Shown piece after piece: positions 5,337 to 47,328 of a DNA stretch of 64,000 bases. This DNA is from Exiguobacterium sp. s122. Its GTDB lineage: Bacteria > Bacillota > Bacilli > Exiguobacteriales > Exiguobacteriaceae. Under the pieces are notes generated by a model that was not told the origin of the DNA, ran no database searches, and was given only the letters and a program-made list of their open reading frames with translations. Position numbers and translations under genes: made by a program. Where the stretch lies: positions 1,860,001-1,924,000 of the forward strand of contig NZ_JACSMD010000001.1 of NCBI RefSeq assembly GCF_018618475.1, read 5' to 3'. The stretch's first letter is position 1. Every line of letters starts with the position of its first letter.

Positions 5337-5351
5337 TATTTTAAATGGAAG

Positions 5352-5425
<74 letters not shown>

Positions 5426-5437
5426 ATTGACAAGAAA

Positions 5438-5466
5438 ACTATAATAGAAAAATGGTTTGCTGTCAA
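5438..5466 (-). promoter_or_regulatory. tRNA-Arg promoter
   Basis: Perfect -35 TTGACA (5461-5466), a 17-bp spacer and -10 TATAGT (5438-5443), 12 bp upstream of the mature tRNA 5' end. Confidence 0.9.
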
Positions 5467-5484
5467 TTCCTTCTTTTCATTCCG

Positions 5485-5997
5485 TTAGAGCTTTCCGCTC
5501 ACGTCAAGGTCGGATACAGCCGAGCCGTCCTCAGACCGATAGAACCGGACCGCGGCCTCTCCGTTCTCAAGGTCAAGGAGCGCATACGTCTTATCACTGC
5601 GACCACGCGGCATCCGAATGGAACCCGGGTTGATGTACAACACCCCGTCTTGAATCAACGCACCGGCGACATGAGAGTGACCGAACAAGACGACGTTCGC
5701 CCCGACCTCTTCGGCCCGGTAACGCAACCGGTTCAAGTCATACTTCACATCGTGATGATGACCATGTACGATGAGAATCGTCCCAGCCGGCGTCGTCTCG
5801 ACGCGTTCGAGTGGGAGGTCACCACCGAAATCACAATTCCCACGCACGGTCCGATACGGGAGCAGATGCTCGTCAACAAGTGCGAGCTGCGAGTCTCCGC
5901 AATGAAACGCATCGTCAATCTCTTCTTCGTGCCGGTGGAAGATGTTCAATAGTTCTTCTGTCAATCCGTGGCTGTCACTGACTATGAGAAAACGCAT
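5485..5997 (-). CDS. YsnB/YfcE-type metallophosphoesterase
   Basis: 170 aa, a small cytoplasmic calcineurin-like phosphodiesterase. The metal-binding motifs are in order: SDSHG (residues 7-11), HCGDSQ, GNCDFG, HGHHHD and GHSHVAG. An in-frame GTG at 6006 exists, but ATG at 5997 is chosen because GAAGGG sits 8 nt before it. It starts 5 nt after the rdgB stop and closes the murI-rph-rdgB operon, the same neighbour as B. subtilis ysnB. Family members cleave small phosphodiesters in vitro; the physiological substrate is not established. Confidence 0.9.
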   Translation of the reverse strand: MRFLIVSDSHGLTEELLNIFHRHEEEIDDAFHCGDSQLALVDEHLLPYRTVRGNCDFGGDLPLERVETTPAGTILIVHGHHHDVKYDLNRLRYRAEEVGANVVLFGHSHVAGALIQDGVLYINPGSIRMPRGRSDKTYALLDLENGEAAVRFYRSEDGSAVSDLDVSGKL

Positions 5998-6002
5998 ACG
6001 GC

Positions 6003-6593
6003 TCACCCTTCCATGAATGAAATGATTTCTGCCTCCAACTTTCGTAACGCTTGACCGCGGTGACTAACCGCCGCTTTTTCGTCCCGCTCGAGTTCTGCCG
6101 CCGTCTTATGGAGCGACGGGACGATGAAGAGCGGATCGTAACCGAAACCGTTCTCGCCGTGTGGCGCATACCCAATCGTTCCTTCGAGCGTCCCACGTAC
6201 CGTCAACGTCTCCCCAGACGGTTTTGCAAGACAGAGCGCACAGACGAATCGGGCTGAGCGATCGGTCGCCCCGTTCAACTTCTCCAACAACAAGGCGTTG
6301 TTCGCCTCGTCTGATTTTTCTGGCCCAGCGAAACGGGCCGAGTAAATGCCTGGCGCCCCGTCGAGCGCATCGACTTCAAGTCCTGAATCGTCCGCGAGGA
6401 CCGCGTGTCCGAAGTAGTGGGCCGCTTCCGTCGCCTTCAGCTCGGCGTTCGCCTCAAACGTCGTGCCGGTCTCGTCCGTCTCTGGTGCGTCCGGATAGTC
6501 CAAAAGTGACTCGACTTCAAAACCGAGCGGCGTCAACATCGCCTCCAACTCTTTTACTTTTCCTGCGTTATGTGTCGCAATAATCAACTTCAT
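6003..6593 (-). CDS. rdgB: XTP/dITP diphosphatase (HAM1/RdgB family)
   Basis: 196 aa. Hydrolyses non-canonical purine nucleoside triphosphates (dITP, XTP) to monophosphates, keeping them out of DNA and RNA. Seen: the N-terminal nucleotide-binding motif [10 protein letters not shown], the central [11 protein letters not shown] metal site and GYDPLF near residue 150, all diagnostic. ATG at 6593 overlaps the rph stop by four bases (ATGA), with GGAGG upstream inside rph, so translation is probably coupled. A longer frame to 6629 has no ribosome site. In B. subtilis the homologue ysnA also follows rph. Confidence 0.97.
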
Positions 6594-37780: not shown

Positions 37781-37813
37781 GAAAGCGGAACCAACTGAAA
37801 TGGTCCCGCTTTC
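37781..37813 (-). terminator. Hairpin after the three-gene helicase module
   Basis: GAAAGCGG-ACCA / TGGT-CCGCTTTC stem (one mismatch) directly after the last gene. The T tract is poor, so it is a weak terminator or an RNA end-protecting stem. Confidence 0.6.
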
Positions 37814-37815
37814 GG

Positions 37816-38097
37816 TTACTTTTTCAGTTGGCGCAGGCCCCAAATGCCCTTATTTCCTGTGGAATAAAACAAGTCTTCGTTGCCGCCGAAACTCGCGGAA
37901 TCGCTCGAGTGGGCACGAATCTGTTTATTGACGTGCGCTTTCCAATCTTTATACCGATCGAGTTCGAGTTGATAGTATGACTTCTCGATGTAGTCATAGA
38001 TTTCTTTCAATGATGCCTTCCCGCCGTGATGCTGGAGGGCGAATTGGATTTTGCGAAGTAGTGCGTGTTTCAAGTTAAAGACCCCTTTCCCAATCAT
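37816..38097 (-). CDS. Small basic DNA-binding-like protein of the helicase module
   Basis: 93 aa, basic. The N-terminal half looks like a winged helix (LLRKIQFALQHHGGKASLKEIYDYIEK, in part), and the C-terminal half has SSDSASFGGNEDLFYSTGNKGIWGLR, a pattern that follows wHTH domains in restriction and defence-associated proteins. No nuclease motif is visible. ATG at 38097 overlaps the helicase stop (ATGA). TTG at 38073, with AAAGGGG eight bases before, is an equally good start. Function unknown; probably a DNA-recognition or regulatory subunit of the preceding helicase. Confidence 0.68.
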   Translation of the reverse strand: MIGKGVFNLKHALLRKIQFALQHHGGKASLKEIYDYIEKSYYQLELDRYKDWKAHVNKQIRAHSSDSASFGGNEDLFYSTGNKGIWGLRQLKK

Positions 38098-40451
38098 TCT
38101 GAAGCTTTCCGACTAAAGTAATGATGCAGTCGCACTTCAACGATTTGACTGACCCATTCGTAAATCAAAGGATGAGCATATGCTTCAATAGGCTCGATAT
38201 GTAACGACTCCTCTGACACGAAGAACGGTCCTTTCGCTATCTTATCAAATGGCATCCGTAACAGTAACTTTTCAATCCGTTTCTGCTCGAACGGGGATTG
38301 TAAGTCTTTCGTCTGTCCGTCAATCTGCTGCCGATACGGGAAGGCATTGATAAACTCATAGAATGGTCGAGCCGCCTCGCTCGCGGAAAGTGGTTGAAGC
38401 CATCTATCGACTCCACGACTTAAGATGATTGATAACACAATCATCTTATAGCTTTTCGTCATGTCGGTGTATTCAACTTCGAGCAACAACGATTTCGACT
38501 CTTCAAACAGATGACTCTCTTCATCATCTAGCTCACCCATCCGGTCGAGAAACCCGTAAAAGCCACCATCTTTCTTCCATTCAGAACGATAGGCATCGAT
38601 TGAGTATTCGCCTCGTTGAATCAACTCTAGGTAACTTGGGCGTCTTCCGAGTTCTTCTTTTACCGTGTAGTAGTTCCGCTCCAACTGCTGCCGACGCGTC
38701 GAAGAACGGGTCACCATTCGCTTCAACAAATCGATGGCGTGCAAATCGAATTCAATAGTGCATCTACTTGGTAAATCTATTTTTGTAGGAAGAGCTTTTA
38801 CAATCGGTTGTCGTTTTGTCGTCAGGAGTGCCAACTTCTTGTCGATATTCTTGTAGTTTCCAATCAAATCAATAATGGTGCAATGCGTCTTCCCGCTCAG
38901 TAAGCGGAGTCCACGACCGATCTGTTGCGTGAAGACCGTCAACGATTCGGTCGGACGACAGAATAGGAGTGTATCGATTTCCGGAATATCGACACCTTCG
39001 TTGAACAAGTTCACCGCGAAGATAATATCGAGGTGTCCTTGCTTCAATTGATGCATTACATCGGCACGATCATATTCGGTCTGGCTATGTAACGCGAGAG
39101 CCTGTACACCTTGCATCCGAAAATAGTCGGCCAAGTATTCAGCTTGTGTGACCGACGAACAGAAACCGAGCGCTCGTGTCTGGTGATGTATCTTCCACGC
39201 CTCATAGATTTTTTGAGCGACACTCTCTTTCAATTGCTCCGCCAACAGTTCGTCCTGATCATAGCGACGACCGTTAATCAATCGAATCTGCGAATAGTCG
39301 ATCTCATCATAAATTCCAACGTAATGGAATGGCGTCAAATACGACTCTTCAATTGCTTCAGTAAAGTGCATCTGATATGCGACATTGTCGTCGCATAAAG
39401 CATAGACGTCTCCCCCATCCAACCGGTCCGGCGTCGCCGTCAATCCGAGCAAGAATTTTGGCTCAAAGTAGTCGAGGACACGTCGATAGGACGGTGCCGC
39501 CGAGTGATGGAATTCGTCGACAACAATCAAATCGAACTGACCTGATTCGAACTGTTCCATTCGGTGTTTCGAGGCCAACGTTTGAATCGATGCGAACAAG
39601 ACGTCTGCCGATTCCTCGTTTCTCGAGTCACCACCAAGGAGTAGCCCTGTCTTCCATTCATTCGAGACCCTTTTGAAAGAGTTCTCTGCTTGAAGCAAAA
39701 TCTCTTTTTGATGGGCGATGAAGAGTACTCGTTTGAACTGGCGGGCGAAGAAGGCGCTCAAGTACGTCTTCCCGAGTCCGGTAGCGAGCACGAGCATTGC
39801 CTTACGTCTACCTTCTTCCATCGTCTCCCGTAACGCCGTCAACGCAGCATCTTGCACGGTGTTCGGCGTGATTGTGTCGTCCTCGATATAAACAGGTGGC
39901 GCTTCTGCAATCAGCTCAGCTTCCTTCATCCGGTCTTGACGGGCATTGTACTCTTCACGATAAGGCTGTAACGAAACGGCATTCATGATTTGGGAATAAT
40001 CACTGTAAAACAAATCATGAAACGCATCGACCGATTGCTCGAACACGTTCTCCGAGATACTTGCTGGAATCTCGACGTTCCATTCGACGCCTCGATTTAG
40101 TGCACTGCGCGACAAATTAGACGAGCCGACAAAGAATGTACCCCCATCTTCTGTGCGGAACAAGTAGGCTTTCGGATGGAATGACTGACCTTTTGAACGA
40201 TAGAGTCGTAGCTCTACGCCTTGAATGTTCATTAACATTTCCAGCGCATCCGGGTTCGTCAAATAGAGATAATCTCCAATCAGAATCCGTACCTGGGCAC
40301 CGCGTTTAACTGCGTCCTCAAGAGAAACGGCAATTTCTTGCACGCCCGATACTTGCGCAAACGCGACGACCATATAAATTTCAGTCGCCGCGTCAATTTG
40401 ACGTTGTAATGGAACTCGTAAATGACTGGTGTGCAGACGTAACTCACTCAT
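38094..40451 (-). CDS. PLD-like nuclease / SF2 DEAD-box helicase fusion protein
   Basis: 785 aa. Residues 1-170: a phospholipase D-like domain with one HxK half-site (SFHPKAYLF) and GSSNLSRSAL, as in nucleases that act as dimers. Residues 200-560: superfamily 2 helicase with motif I LATGLGKT, motif II VVDEFHH, motif III GLTATPDR and motif VI QQIGRGLR. A 220-residue C-terminal region follows, including LGRRPSYLELIQRG, of unknown role. ATG at 40451 overlaps the MazG-like gene by 8 bases and has GAGG upstream; the frame is open further. G+C is visibly lower than in the backbone (two 60-base lines counted by hand give 45% and 40%, versus 62% in one uvrC line). Likely DNA defence or repair. Confidence 0.85.
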   Translation of the reverse strand: MSELRLHTSHLRVPLQRQIDAATEIYMVVAFAQVSGVQEIAVSLEDAVKRGAQVRILIGDYLYLTNPDALEMLMNIQGVELRLYRSKGQSFHPKAYLFRTEDGGTFFVGSSNLSRSALNRGVEWNVEIPASISENVFEQSVDAFHDLFYSDYSQIMNAVSLQPYREEYNARQDRMKEAELIAEAPPVYIEDDTITPNTVQDAALTALRETMEEGRRKAMLVLATGLGKTYLSAFFARQFKRVLFIAHQKEILLQAENSFKRVSNEWKTGLLLGGDSRNEESADVLFASIQTLASKHRMEQFESGQFDLIVVDEFHHSAAPSYRRVLDYFEPKFLLGLTATPDRLDGGDVYALCDDNVAYQMHFTEAIEESYLTPFHYVGIYDEIDYSQIRLINGRRYDQDELLAEQLKESVAQKIYEAWKIHHQTRALGFCSSVTQAEYLADYFRMQGVQALALHSQTEYDRADVMHQLKQGHLDIIFAVNLFNEGVDIPEIDTLLFCRPTESLTVFTQQIGRGLRLLSGKTHCTIIDLIGNYKNIDKKLALLTTKRQPIVKALPTKIDLPSRCTIEFDLHAIDLLKRMVTRSSTRRQQLERNYYTVKEELGRRPSYLELIQRGEYSIDAYRSEWKKDGGFYGFLDRMGELDDEESHLFEESKSLLLEVEYTDMTKSYKMIVLSIILSRGVDRWLQPLSASEAARPFYEFINAFPYRQQIDGQTKDLQSPFEQKRIEKLLLRMPFDKIAKGPFFVSEESLHIEPIEAYAHPLIYEWVSQIVEVRLHHYFSRKASE

Positions 40452-40773
40452 GATCAAGGACCTCTTCCAAGAAGAGACCTTTTTCAAAACCGCCCCGCTT
40501 CTCACGCTTCTCCTCACGGATACGATTTAATTCTTCAAAGCTTGCACCATGCATTTTCGCGAGCGTATAGACGAGTTCCAAAATGTCAGCAAGTTCTTCG
40601 AGCGATTCTTCATAGATGTTCGTCTCTTCGTACTCTTTGATTTCTTCATAGAGTTTCAAGCGGGCCTGTTCGAAATGCTCGGCTTGGTTAAGATGTTTGA
40701 CGACAGGGATTTGCCCTGTTTCGTGAATGATTTCAGGAATACGGTCGCGGATTAATTTATTATACTTAGCCAT
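40444..40773 (-). CDS. MazG-like nucleotide pyrophosphohydrolase
   Basis: 109 aa. The all-alpha NTP pyrophosphohydrolase fold: MAKYNKLIRDRIPEII at the N-terminus and the metal-binding ExxE...ExxD pattern in YEEIKEYEE and ESLEELADILELV. Predicted to hydrolyse (d)NTPs to monophosphates. AAGGAGG gives a strong ribosome site for ATG at 40773. Its end overlaps the start of the PLD-helicase gene by 8 bases, so the two are translationally coupled. In a defence setting it could alter nucleotide pools; alone it would be a housecleaning enzyme. Confidence 0.85.
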   Translation of the reverse strand: MAKYNKLIRDRIPEIIHETGQIPVVKHLNQAEHFEQARLKLYEEIKEYEETNIYEESLEELADILELVYTLAKMHGASFEELNRIREEKREKRGGFEKGLFLEEVLDHE

Positions 40774-40807
40774 TGAGTTTCCTCCTTGTATACTGTGATT
40801 TCAGATT

Positions 40808-40819
40808 TAATAATTATTA
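40808..40819. repeat. A+T palindrome upstream of the helicase module
   Basis: Perfect 12-bp palindrome TAATAATTATTA in an A+T-rich 70-base gap before the MazG-like gene. It could be an operator or simply low-complexity DNA. Confidence 0.45.
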
Positions 40820-40845
40820 GAATGTTAAATTTAAACTTTCTTTTC

Positions 40846-41049
40846 TCATTCCACAATCTCAAACGCCTTCACATATGCCACATAATCGAGGAACAAAATT
40901 AGCTCCTCATCAAATTGCACAAATCCGTCCGACGCGTGTCGGAATGCTTGATAAATCCCTTCGAGCGCCGCATAGCGGCTCTCCGACTCGACCGTATACG
41001 TCAAAATCTCTTCATTGATCAAATGAAACTCAATCTCGTATGATTTCAT
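40846..41049 (-). CDS. Small acidic protein of unknown function
   Basis: 67 aa, acidic, alpha/beta, no membrane segment. No family recognised. GAAGGAGG is well placed before ATG at 41049; the frame open to 41079 adds residues that include this site and is not used. It is on the same strand as, and 72 bases ahead of, the MazG/helicase module, so it may be its first gene, although a promoter in the gap would separate them. Confidence 0.65.
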   Translation of the reverse strand: MKSYEIEFHLINEEILTYTVESESRYAALEGIYQAFRHASDGFVQFDEELILFLDYVAYVKAFEIVE

Positions 41050-45221: not shown

Positions 45222-45680
45222 CTAATATCGAAACTCTGACACTTTTGCATTTACTCTTGAATAGAGCGACTCCATCGAGAATCGACTTGGACGGCTCGTG
45301 TCTCCACCGTATAAGGCCTCGATGGTTTGATTGATATACGCGTTTTCCGCTTCTAAATATTCGACAACGAGGTCTTTAAACTCATCGGCCGAGGAATTCT
45401 CATGCCGCAAGCCTTCCAGTTCGGCTACATACGTCTCGTTGTCTACTTGCACGCCCTGCAATTCTCTAACCGCTCCAGAAATTGCGACAACATCTGTCGG
45501 GATACTCGATAGCGTGAGCATCTTGATTTGATGATCGCGTGCTGTCGAAATGATTGAAGCGGCATCGAAATGAACGACCGGTCGATTGTCTATCGTTTCG
45601 ACCGTGTCCGTTCCACCGCAAGCGGTCAACGTTAACATAGGTCCAATGAACAGACTAACGAGTAATAGATATTTTGTAAT
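45222..45680 (-). CDS. Lipoprotein of unknown function, probable ATT start
   Basis: 152 aa as read from ATT at 45680. The ATG-started frame begins only at 45638 and leaves MLTLTACGG, too short a signal peptide. Reading from ATT gives MTKYLLLVSLFIGP before MLTLTAC, a complete lipoprotein signal peptide with lipobox LTAC. AAGGAGG (45688-45694) stands seven bases before ATT, and no other initiator fits; TGA is two codons upstream. ATT starts are very rare (infC, pcnB in E. coli). The mature part is a helical, acidic domain of unknown function. Confidence 0.75.
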   Translation of the reverse strand: MTKYLLLVSLFIGPMLTLTACGGTDTVETIDNRPVVHFDAASIISTARDHQIKMLTLSSIPTDVVAISGAVRELQGVQVDNETYVAELEGLRHENSSADEFKDLVVEYLEAENAYINQTIEALYGGDTSRPSRFSMESLYSRVNAKVSEFRY

Positions 45681-45729
45681 GATTCATCCTCCTTACCACT
45701 TTGTTAAATGACTCCCCTATAAAACGGTG

Positions 45730-46674
45730 TCAGTTACCAAATTTATAATTCCGTTTTCCTGAAGATTTCGCTCGGTAAAGAGCGTCGTCTGCTTGTTTCA
45801 AAAGCGTATCGAGTCTCGTCTGTTCGTCTCGCGTATAGGTGACGATGCCGATACTCGTCGAGACGTGATAGACCGTTTCCCATGCGCTCAACTCCTCGAT
45901 GATTTGGTTCGCGAGGTGGCTCCATTCCACTTGCGTTGCGGATTGAGAAAAGTGTAGCACGAACTCATCGCCACCGAGGCGGACAGCAAATGCCTCTTCT
46001 TGTTGATTCACAATCCGTTGCAGTCGCGATGCCACTTCCTTCAAGACGAGGTCTCCCACATCATGACCGTATGTGTCGTTCACCTTTTTGAAGCCATCGA
46101 GGTCGAGGAAAAAGATTGCGCCACTTTGATTACACTGTCCATCGAAGTACTTCGTCAAATAACGTCGATTGTATAGTTCCGTCAACATGTCTCGCCACAC
46201 GTAATGCTCGAGTTCCAAATAATACGAGAACAATTTGACGATCCGCTGGAGTAAGTTGATACTCTTACGGTCTAACAGGCTCGCTTCATCATTGACGGCA
46301 CACAACGTCCCAAACTTTTCACCGTTCGTGAGGGAAATCGGAATCCCTAAATAGGATTGAATATTGACTCCATCGAGGAGCCCTTTCACTTCATCGATCG
46401 GACAATCTTGTTGTACGTCTTCATAAATCAATGGCTGATTCGTTTCAAAATCAATTCGTTTGCAGACCGAATTGTTTAAATCGACAACCATCCCTTCTTT
46501 TATAAGAATGCTGGATTTTTCATTTGAAAGTTTTAAAACGAATTGCTGGGTGTCGCTAAATGCAGACAGATAAAACAATTGTTCAGGTAATATTTCTTTT
46601 GCGAGATCGAGTACATCATTGGCTAACTCGTCAAAGCTTTCATACATCTTTAATTCTTCTACTTGTGTCATCAT
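45730..46674 (-). CDS. GAF-GGDEF diguanylate cyclase
   Basis: 314 aa. An N-terminal GAF domain (about residues 15-150: SYLGIPISLTNGEKFGTLCAVND) joined to a GGDEF domain (160-310) with the intact active-site motif RLGGDEFVLHFS. Predicted to make cyclic di-GMP from two GTP in the cytoplasm, controlled by a small ligand at the GAF domain. The product-inhibition RxxD site normally five residues before GGDEF is not present. GGAGG precedes ATG at 46674. No other c-di-GMP gene lies in the window. Confidence 0.92.
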   Translation of the reverse strand: MMTQVEELKMYESFDELANDVLDLAKEILPEQLFYLSAFSDTQQFVLKLSNEKSSILIKEGMVVDLNNSVCKRIDFETNQPLIYEDVQQDCPIDEVKGLLDGVNIQSYLGIPISLTNGEKFGTLCAVNDEASLLDRKSINLLQRIVKLFSYYLELEHYVWRDMLTELYNRRYLTKYFDGQCNQSGAIFFLDLDGFKKVNDTYGHDVGDLVLKEVASRLQRIVNQQEEAFAVRLGGDEFVLHFSQSATQVEWSHLANQIIEELSAWETVYHVSTSIGIVTYTRDEQTRLDTLLKQADDALYRAKSSGKRNYKFGN

Positions 46675-46815
46675 ACAGCGCCTCCAGACAGTTCCGTTCT
46701 CTTTCTAACCATGTTTTTAATCCATTATCTTTTTTATTCATTTACTAATTTTAACATAGGAAACGATTCATATTCATATAGGAGGCAATATAGGACGTAA
46801 ATCGTTCCCATCTTT

Positions 46816-47283
46816 TTAAATCATGTCGTCGTCCACGACCTCTACAACTACGCCTACATCTCCGACTTTCCCTAAATCTTCTACACTCGGATCTTCATAT
46901 GCTAAAACGTGGAACTCTTGCTCAAATGTGCGGATTACGTAATGCCCTAGCGTCCCTCGCTCCGAGTTGATGCGTTCGGTCGCCATATGTTCTGCTGCGA
47001 ATTGCGTGAAGCGAGAGGAATTCAACTTCACGACCGGATAAGCATTGTGAAGTCCCGCTTCATCTAACCCATGCTCTTCCAATGCCCCGAGAAAAACGGC
47101 GTACTGTTCGAAACGAATGCGAATCCGGTCACGTTCAGCATCCCATGTTAGTAGCCTCGTCGCGTCATCCGCCCCGAAACACGTCCATTCGAGCGGATAG
47201 TACATCTCGTCTTTCATCTGAAACGACTCGACGTCGAGCTGATAACCCTGGGTCGTCATCAAAAAATTCAAATCGATGCCCAA
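46816..47283 (-). CDS. Hypothetical protein
   Basis: 155 aa, no signal peptide or membrane helix. No family recognised. The C-terminus is strongly acidic (DVGVVVEVVDDDM). TTG at 47283 is taken as start because GGGGGAG lies about five bases before it; the longer frame to 47301 would place the ribosome site inside the gene. Downstream of the strong terminator that closes the yshE-like unit. It may be cotranscribed with nothing else. Confidence 0.6.
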   Translation of the reverse strand: MGIDLNFLMTTQGYQLDVESFQMKDEMYYPLEWTCFGADDATRLLTWDAERDRIRIRFEQYAVFLGALEEHGLDEAGLHNAYPVVKLNSSRFTQFAAEHMATERINSERGTLGHYVIRTFEQEFHVLAYEDPSVEDLGKVGDVGVVVEVVDDDMI

Positions 47284-47299
47284 ACTAGCTCCCCCTTTC

Positions 47300-47328
47300 A
47301 AAAAAAGCGACGTCCGCAGACGTCGCTT
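47300..47328 (-). terminator. Intrinsic terminator of the zapA-to-DUF350 transcript
   Basis: A perfect 10-bp stem AAGCGACGTC / GACGTCGCTT with a CGCA-type loop and seven T residues on the minus strand, five bases past the small membrane peptide gene. Confidence 0.9.

What the first reader, a model, noticed from the sequence alone, without database searches (positions are those of the whole stretch)
37816..41049. Three overlapping genes (MazG-like NTPase, PLD-nuclease/SF2 helicase, small wHTH-like protein): candidate defence module
Seen: the MazG-like gene overlaps the helicase by 8 bases, and the helicase overlaps the small protein by 4, so all three are translated as a unit. The helicase carries a nuclease-type PLD half-site and complete SF2 motifs. 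Known: PLD plus helicase and NTP-pyrophosphohydrolase plus nuclease combinations occur in anti-phage systems. The block has lower G+C (hand counts 45% and 40% in two lines versus 62% in a uvrC line) and lies in the accessory region. Inference: a phage or plasmid defence or DNA-repair island, with the small acidic ORF at 40846 possibly included.
Basis: partly seen in the sequence, partly recalled or inferred. Interest (0 to 1): 0.65.

Follow-up and report, generated by a model that had tools for sequence, protein, structure and literature searches.

The report
MazG-coupled DNA-shredding enzyme, defence hotspot
This Exiguobacterium locus pairs a DNA-cutting motor protein related to a known restriction enzyme with a nucleotide-cleaning enzyme; the pair is conserved across many Gram-positive families, often among anti-phage genes, and suggests that such enzymes travel with a partner that keeps the cell's own DNA building blocks clean.

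Summary
In detail: three genes with 8- and 4-base overlaps, intact SF2 motifs, a PLD H-x-K half-site, and 46.1% G+C against 51.9% for the window. The unit is MazG + PLD/SF2, not all three genes. The pair lies at one site in 16 of 19 genus genomes and recurs, mostly stop/start-overlapping, in 55 of 62 Bacilli loci; in other classes the order is helicase then HIT and/or MazG (10 of 12). The helicase's best solved relative is SauUSI, a modification-dependent (type IV) restriction enzyme, but it lacks the SRA domain and ends in a predicted winged helix. The longer sister families carry a MutT/NudG-type Nudix gene instead (15/16, 16/20). The site is a defence hotspot (Dnd, Ssp, DrmD, type III, GmrSD, AIPR in relatives). 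The small wHTH gene persists without the helicase; the acidic ORF is a border gene. Best reading: a type IV-like DNA shredder whose pyrophosphohydrolase partner keeps restricted modified dNTPs out of host DNA. Defence is well supported by context; the partner's role is inferred; DNA repair is the main rival. No paper found describes the MazG pairing; one figure legend notes MutT beside SauUSI homologs.

The parts
40444..40773 (-). MazG-like all-alpha NTP pyrophosphohydrolase, 109 aa; AAGGAGG about 8 bases upstream; overlaps the helicase by 8 bases
   Evidence: Pfam MazG-like 24.5 bits, just under its 27-bit cut-off; EExxE...EELAD invariant in 24 diverse sequences; adjacent to the helicase in 55 of 62 Bacilli loci
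38094..40451 (-). PLD nuclease + SF2 translocase, 785 aa, SauUSI-like without an SRA domain
   Evidence: phmmer to SauUSI 7clg E 2.7e-89 over residues 22-655; PADLOC mREase_IV E 1.7e-94; motifs
39942..40451 (-). PLD nuclease half-site domain, about residues 1-170 (HPK at 92-94, GSSN downstream)
   Evidence: PLDc_2 47.2 bits; H-x-K and GSSN invariant in 29 sequences, acidic residue of HxKx4E not conserved
38847..39866 (-). SF2 ATPase, about residues 196-535
   Evidence: ResIII 135 bits, Helicase_C 58 bits; motifs I, II, III and VI nearly invariant
38097..38471 (-). C-terminal 'SYKM' domain, about residues 661-785, predicted winged helix, putative target-recognition part
   Evidence: AlphaFold2 model of residues 535-785, mean pLDDT 75.7; VIA-align matches mostly to winged-helix domains at Z 4-6; no Foldseek match at E<=0.001
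37816..38097 (-). Small wHTH-like protein, 93 aa (or 85 aa from TTG 38073); site-associated, not an obligate part of the module
   Evidence: Forkhead 18 bits, under cut-off; present in all 19 genus genomes including three without the helicase; its structure prediction failed (pLDDT 64.6)
37781..37813 (-). Terminator-like hairpin after the last gene
   Evidence: 13-pair stem, -22.5 kcal/mol, z -6.6; not flagged by the consensus scan, no T-run
40846..41049 (-). Small acidic ORF, 67 aa: left border gene of the hotspot, not part of the module
   Evidence: Conserved in relatives near the ABC/FtsX genes, with 2-6 kb of variable cargo between it and mazG

Best explanation
The locus encodes a modification-dependent (type IV-like) restriction module. 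The PLD/SF2 protein dimerises through its PLD half-sites, recognises a non-host DNA feature through its C-terminal winged-helix domain (in place of SauUSI's SRA domain), translocates using ATP and shreds the DNA. The co-translated MazG-like enzyme hydrolyses the matching modified dNTPs, so that the restricted base, released from phage DNA or made by phage enzymes, is not built into the host chromosome, where it would provoke self-cleavage: an immunity partner. HIT (beside or instead of MazG) and Nudix (for the sister families) would play the same part. Shown here: genes, motifs, homology, linkage, hotspot context. Inferred: dimerisation, cleavage, modification dependence, the winged helix as reader of the target, the MazG substrate and the protective role.
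For: SauUSI is the best solved homolog (E 2.7e-89); its mechanism is published (PMC7913695). MazG beside the short family: 55 of 62 Bacilli loci, 26 of 33 outside the window's family. Co-occurrence in 61 genomes: 35/35 with the helicase against 4/26 without (Fisher 7e-13, not corrected for relatedness). Linkage survives rearrangement: outside Bacilli the order is helicase then HIT and/or MazG (10 of 12). Sister families carry MutT/NudG-type Nudix: 15/16 and 16/20. One genome has McrB-McrC-Nudix-SauUSI-like-MazG-PLD/SF2 in a row (L160). MazG relative DCTPP1 hydrolyses 5-methyl- and 5-formyl-dCTP (PMC7162842); NudG hydrolyses 5-methyl-dCTP and MutT does so weakly (PMC3744803); SauUSI cleaves 5mC/5hmC DNA (PMC3874153). 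Hotspot cargo. Purifying selection, helicase dN/dS about 0.06.
Against: No activity is tested, and the MazG and Nudix substrates here are unknown. Seven of 62 Bacilli loci lack an adjacent MazG, so it is not strictly required. A C5-cytosine methylase gene lies close to the helicase in L205, so 5mC may not be the target. The winged-helix assignment is weak (Z under 8). The PLD acidic residue is not conserved. Absence of close copies from plasmids and phages is unusual for a defence system. Homologous MazG genes also occur without this helicase (G039, G009, G017, G018).
Confidence: 0.5

Rival explanations
1. A DNA repair or genome-maintenance module: the translocase-nuclease removes damaged or adducted DNA (PLD as in Tdp1, HIT as in aprataxin) while MazG, HIT or Nudix cleans the oxidised or deaminated nucleotide pool.
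For: RadD is the best NCBIfam match of the SF2 core; the partners are classic house-cleaning enzymes; the PLD acidic residue is not conserved, and Tdp1 also lacks it (own knowledge); the family is chromosomal, with no close copy on plasmids or in phages; conserved in 16 of 19 genus genomes.
Against: Patchy distribution (about 80 of 397 Bacilli genomes); location in a defence hotspot; closest solved relative is a restriction enzyme, far better than RadD (303 against 99 bits).
Confidence: 0.22
2. MazG is an effector: on detection of invading DNA it depletes (d)NTPs to stop phage replication, with the PLD/SF2 protein as sensor or second effector.
For: Tight co-translation; nucleotide depletion is a known defence strategy (own knowledge); a 2026 paper lists a MazG-domain system as predicted, unvalidated defence (PMC13092281).
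Against: Sister enzymes use a Nudix of house-cleaning type; a sensor fused to an intact nuclease does not need a separate effector; MazG is missing at some loci.
Confidence: 0.1
3. A sequence-specific restriction or anti-plasmid nuclease in which MazG is an inherited neighbour without a functional link.
For: Some loci lack MazG; a methylase gene lies nearby in L205.
Against: Linkage persists at low identity and with changed gene order in other classes; no methyltransferase is constantly linked.
Confidence: 0.12

Closest known systems
SauUSI (type IV restriction enzyme, Staphylococcus aureus; PDB 7clg)
   Same: N-terminal PLD with H-x-K, SF2 ATPase, start of the coupler; about 300-bit match over residues 22-655
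   Different: 785 against 953 aa; no SRA domain, a predicted winged helix instead; the acidic residue of HxKx4E is not conserved; linked to MazG/HIT rather than Nudix
DUF3427-length PLD-helicases (about 1050-1085 aa)
   Same: PLD + SF2 core, about 37-43% identity over 520-620 residues
   Different: Longer C-terminus; Nudix gene adjacent in 15 of 16
MazG/DCTPP1 all-alpha NTP pyrophosphohydrolases
   Same: EExxE...ExxD motif; about 110 aa
   Different: Below the Pfam cut-off; only marginal solved relatives, E 0.15 and 0.32; co-translated with a nuclease
MutT-SauUSI neighbourhoods in Streptococcus (PMC7641849, Fig. 9 legend)
   Same: An NTP pyrophosphohydrolase next to a PLD/SF2 enzyme
   Different: Nudix, not MazG; a remark in a figure legend, no function proposed in the passages found

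Membership tests
SauUSI-type type IV restriction enzymes | PLD domain with conserved HxKx4E | tested here: not met
   H, K and GSSN invariant; the E position is R, Q, G, N, H, K, E or D among 29 sequences and R in the window
SauUSI-type type IV restriction enzymes | SF2 helicase-like ATPase | tested here: met
   Motifs nearly invariant; ResIII and Helicase_C; 7clg alignment
SauUSI-type type IV restriction enzymes | Alpha-helical coupler after the ATPase | tested here: inconclusive
   Alignment to 7clg extends to residue 655; residues 535-660 are helical in the model but partly of low confidence
SauUSI-type type IV restriction enzymes | C-terminal SRA or DUF3427 target-recognition domain | tested here: not met
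   No Pfam match after residue 624; no alignment to 7clg past 655; mostly helical model with a hairpin, nearest to winged helices
SauUSI-type type IV restriction enzymes | Cleavage dependent on modified DNA and ATP | not testable with these tools
   Needs biochemistry
MazG-like all-alpha NTP pyrophosphohydrolases | EExxE...ExxD metal-binding motif | tested here: met
   Invariant in 24 sequences
MazG-like all-alpha NTP pyrophosphohydrolases | Score above the Pfam PF12643 gathering cut-off | tested here: not met
   24.5 against 27 bits
RadD DNA repair helicase | NCBIfam equivalog score (720 bits) | tested here: not met
   137 bits, SF2 core only
DISARM DrmC | NCBIfam DrmC equivalog score (133 bits) | tested here: not met
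   25.8 bits, PLD part only
Named multi-gene defence system in PADLOC | MazG and the wHTH protein match system components | tested here: not met
   No PADLOC hit for MazG; only NsnC at E 0.003 for the wHTH protein

The most novel reading that the evidence does not exclude
Three lineages of PLD/SF2 modification-dependent nucleases each carry a dedicated nucleotide-pool cleaner (MazG and/or HIT for the short winged-helix family, Nudix for the DUF3427-length and SauUSI-length families). The cleaner acts as a self-immunity factor by keeping the restricted base out of host DNA: a general answer to how type IV restriction avoids autoimmunity, different from protective methylation.
Probability: 0.35. 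Interest if true: 0.78.

Novelty: new variant of a known kind. Interest (0 to 1): 0.58.

Why it matters
Type IV enzymes attack modified DNA, so a cell carrying one is at risk if modified nucleotides enter its own chromosome. A conserved, co-translated NTP pyrophosphohydrolase offers a simple, testable solution, and its substrate would point directly to the modified base each nuclease targets. The pattern also gives a rule for finding and classifying further members of this enzyme group.

Tried and rejected
Single named defence system: rejected, no PADLOC profile for MazG or wHTH. Three-gene unit: rejected, the wHTH gene persists without the helicase. Acidic ORF as a module part: rejected, border gene. 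Mobile island on phage or plasmid: no close copy in plasmids, phages or viral contigs. Structure of the small wHTH protein: prediction failed. Foldseek for the helicase C-terminus gave no match at E<=0.001; only the VIA-align second look points to winged helices, at Z under 8. Solved-structure search for the small protein: none. Consensus promoters and terminators: no more than in shuffles. Paper searches for MazG with helicase and PLD, or with histidine triad and restriction, found no description of the pairing; only open-licence PMC papers were searched. Helicase and flank divergence compared for allele replacement: helicase dS exceeds the neighbour's (0.85 against 0.34 for G016), suggestive only.

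Full report
Observation. The window lies in an Exiguobacterium genome (G000:C1:1860001-1924000; named close relatives). On the minus strand a MazG-like gene (40444-40773), a PLD/SF2 gene (38094-40451 from its ATG) and a small wHTH-like gene (37816-38097) follow one another with overlaps of 8 and 4 bases. A strong hairpin follows the last stop. G+C is 46.1% against 51.9% for the window, in the lowest 1% of equal stretches. Motifs are intact. The 4-base overlap depends on the start codon chosen: in eight relatives another ORF lies between the two genes, and a TTG at 38073 is an equally good start.

The helicase. Its best solved relative is SauUSI, 7clg (E 2.7e-89 over residues 22-655); PADLOC's best profile is mREase_IV (E 1.7e-94). 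SauUSI is a dimeric ATP-dependent type IV enzyme that translocates and shreds 5mC/5hmC DNA and reads its target with an SRA domain (PMC7913695; PMC3874153). Here the SRA part is absent. Residues 661-785 carry an 'SYKM' domain whose model (mean pLDDT 75.7 for residues 535-785) resembles winged helices at Z 4-6, a weak assignment. H-x-K and GSSN of the PLD site are invariant in 29 sequences, but the acidic residue is not. So the protein works like SauUSI by anatomy but does not meet all of its defining features. In eight genus relatives a stand-alone ORF resembling this C-terminal domain sits between helicase and wHTH.

The MazG link. The short family (about 770-830 aa) is found in roughly 80 of 397 sampled Bacilli genomes. 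Among 62 Bacilli loci examined, 55 have MazG directly beside it and 57 have MazG or HIT; outside the window's own family the figures are 26 and 28 of 33, with MazG in 13 further families. Most MazG stops overlap the helicase start by 1-20 bases. In 61 relatives, all 35 genomes with the helicase have MazG and 4 of 26 without it do (Fisher 7e-13 by genome, 6e-6 by genus, not corrected for ancestry). Outside Bacilli (38-44% identity) the order changes to helicase then HIT and/or MazG, in 10 of 12 loci. Linkage that survives a change of order is good evidence for a functional tie.

The sister families. The DUF3427-length proteins (16 loci) and SauUSI-length proteins (20 loci) instead have a Nudix gene of MutT/NudG type beside them, in 15 and 16 cases. 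In L160 the order is McrB-McrC-Nudix-SauUSI-like-MazG-PLD/SF2-AAA. The only earlier mention found is a figure legend noting MutT homologs next to SauUSI homologs in Streptococcus (PMC7641849).

The hotspot. In 16 of 19 genus genomes the module sits at one site, between the acidic ORF/ABC-FtsX genes and a 511-aa membrane protein gene. Just upstream of mazG, relatives carry DndFG (G001; near-identical starts in G006 and G012), a type III restriction enzyme (G003), DrmD (G004), GmrSD-type proteins (G008, G014, G015; same protein by its start in G010, G016) or AIPR proteins (G007, G013). The three genomes without the helicase carry Dnd-type (G017) or SspB/SspC genes (G009; near-identical in G018) there, keep the wHTH gene, and have a MazG homolog (72-76%) elsewhere in the region, next to the acidic ORF in G017. 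In the sister genus the pair lies beside RidA, with type I restriction-like or DndFG-like genes downstream by their sequence starts. The window genome has no cargo in the slot.

Mechanism. Best reading: a type IV-like DNA shredder with a co-translated pool cleaner that stops the restricted base entering host DNA. The chemistry fits: the MazG relative DCTPP1 hydrolyses 5-methyl- and 5-formyl-dCTP (PMC7162842), and NudG hydrolyses 5-methyl-dCTP, MutT weakly (PMC3744803). The target base of this short family is unknown; a C5-methylase gene near the helicase in L205 warns against assuming 5mC. DNA repair is the strongest rival, since house-cleaning partners, a Tdp1-like PLD site and chromosomal stability would all fit. 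The hotspot context and the SauUSI relationship favour defence.

Limits. No activity was tested. Loci were taken by similarity rank, so related genomes are over-represented. Literature coverage is open-licence PMC only. The alignment behind the structure model was shallow (13 sequences), and the small protein's model failed.

Noticed in passing
L160 (G336) and L165 (G141): Two PLD/SF2 enzymes of different families stand together with their own pyrophosphohydrolases: Nudix with the SauUSI-like gene, then MazG with the short gene; L160 also has McrBC.
   Followed up: partly
L044 10630-11001 in oriented coordinates, and the same place in L045, L046, L047, L050, L051, L053, L056: A stand-alone ORF resembling the helicase's C-terminal domain (about 30% identity) sits between helicase and wHTH; absent in the window. 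Possibly an extra recognition subunit.
   Followed up: partly
L194, L195, L196 (G009, G017, G006): A second MazG lineage (72-76% to the window's) at the far border of the hotspot, near Dnd/Ssp-type cargo.
   Followed up: partly
L073, L074, L075, L077, L104, L107, L110, L199, L203-L206, L208: HIT-family gene adjacent to the short helicase, upstream in Bacilli and downstream in other classes; sometimes without MazG.
   Followed up: partly
window 45222-47301: A second low-G+C stretch (down to 41.5%) with small ORFs and a GAF-GGDEF gene near the same border.
   Followed up: no
L198 (G039) 5342-6119: Nudix and MazG genes adjacent to each other without any PLD/SF2 gene of the short family.
   Followed up: no
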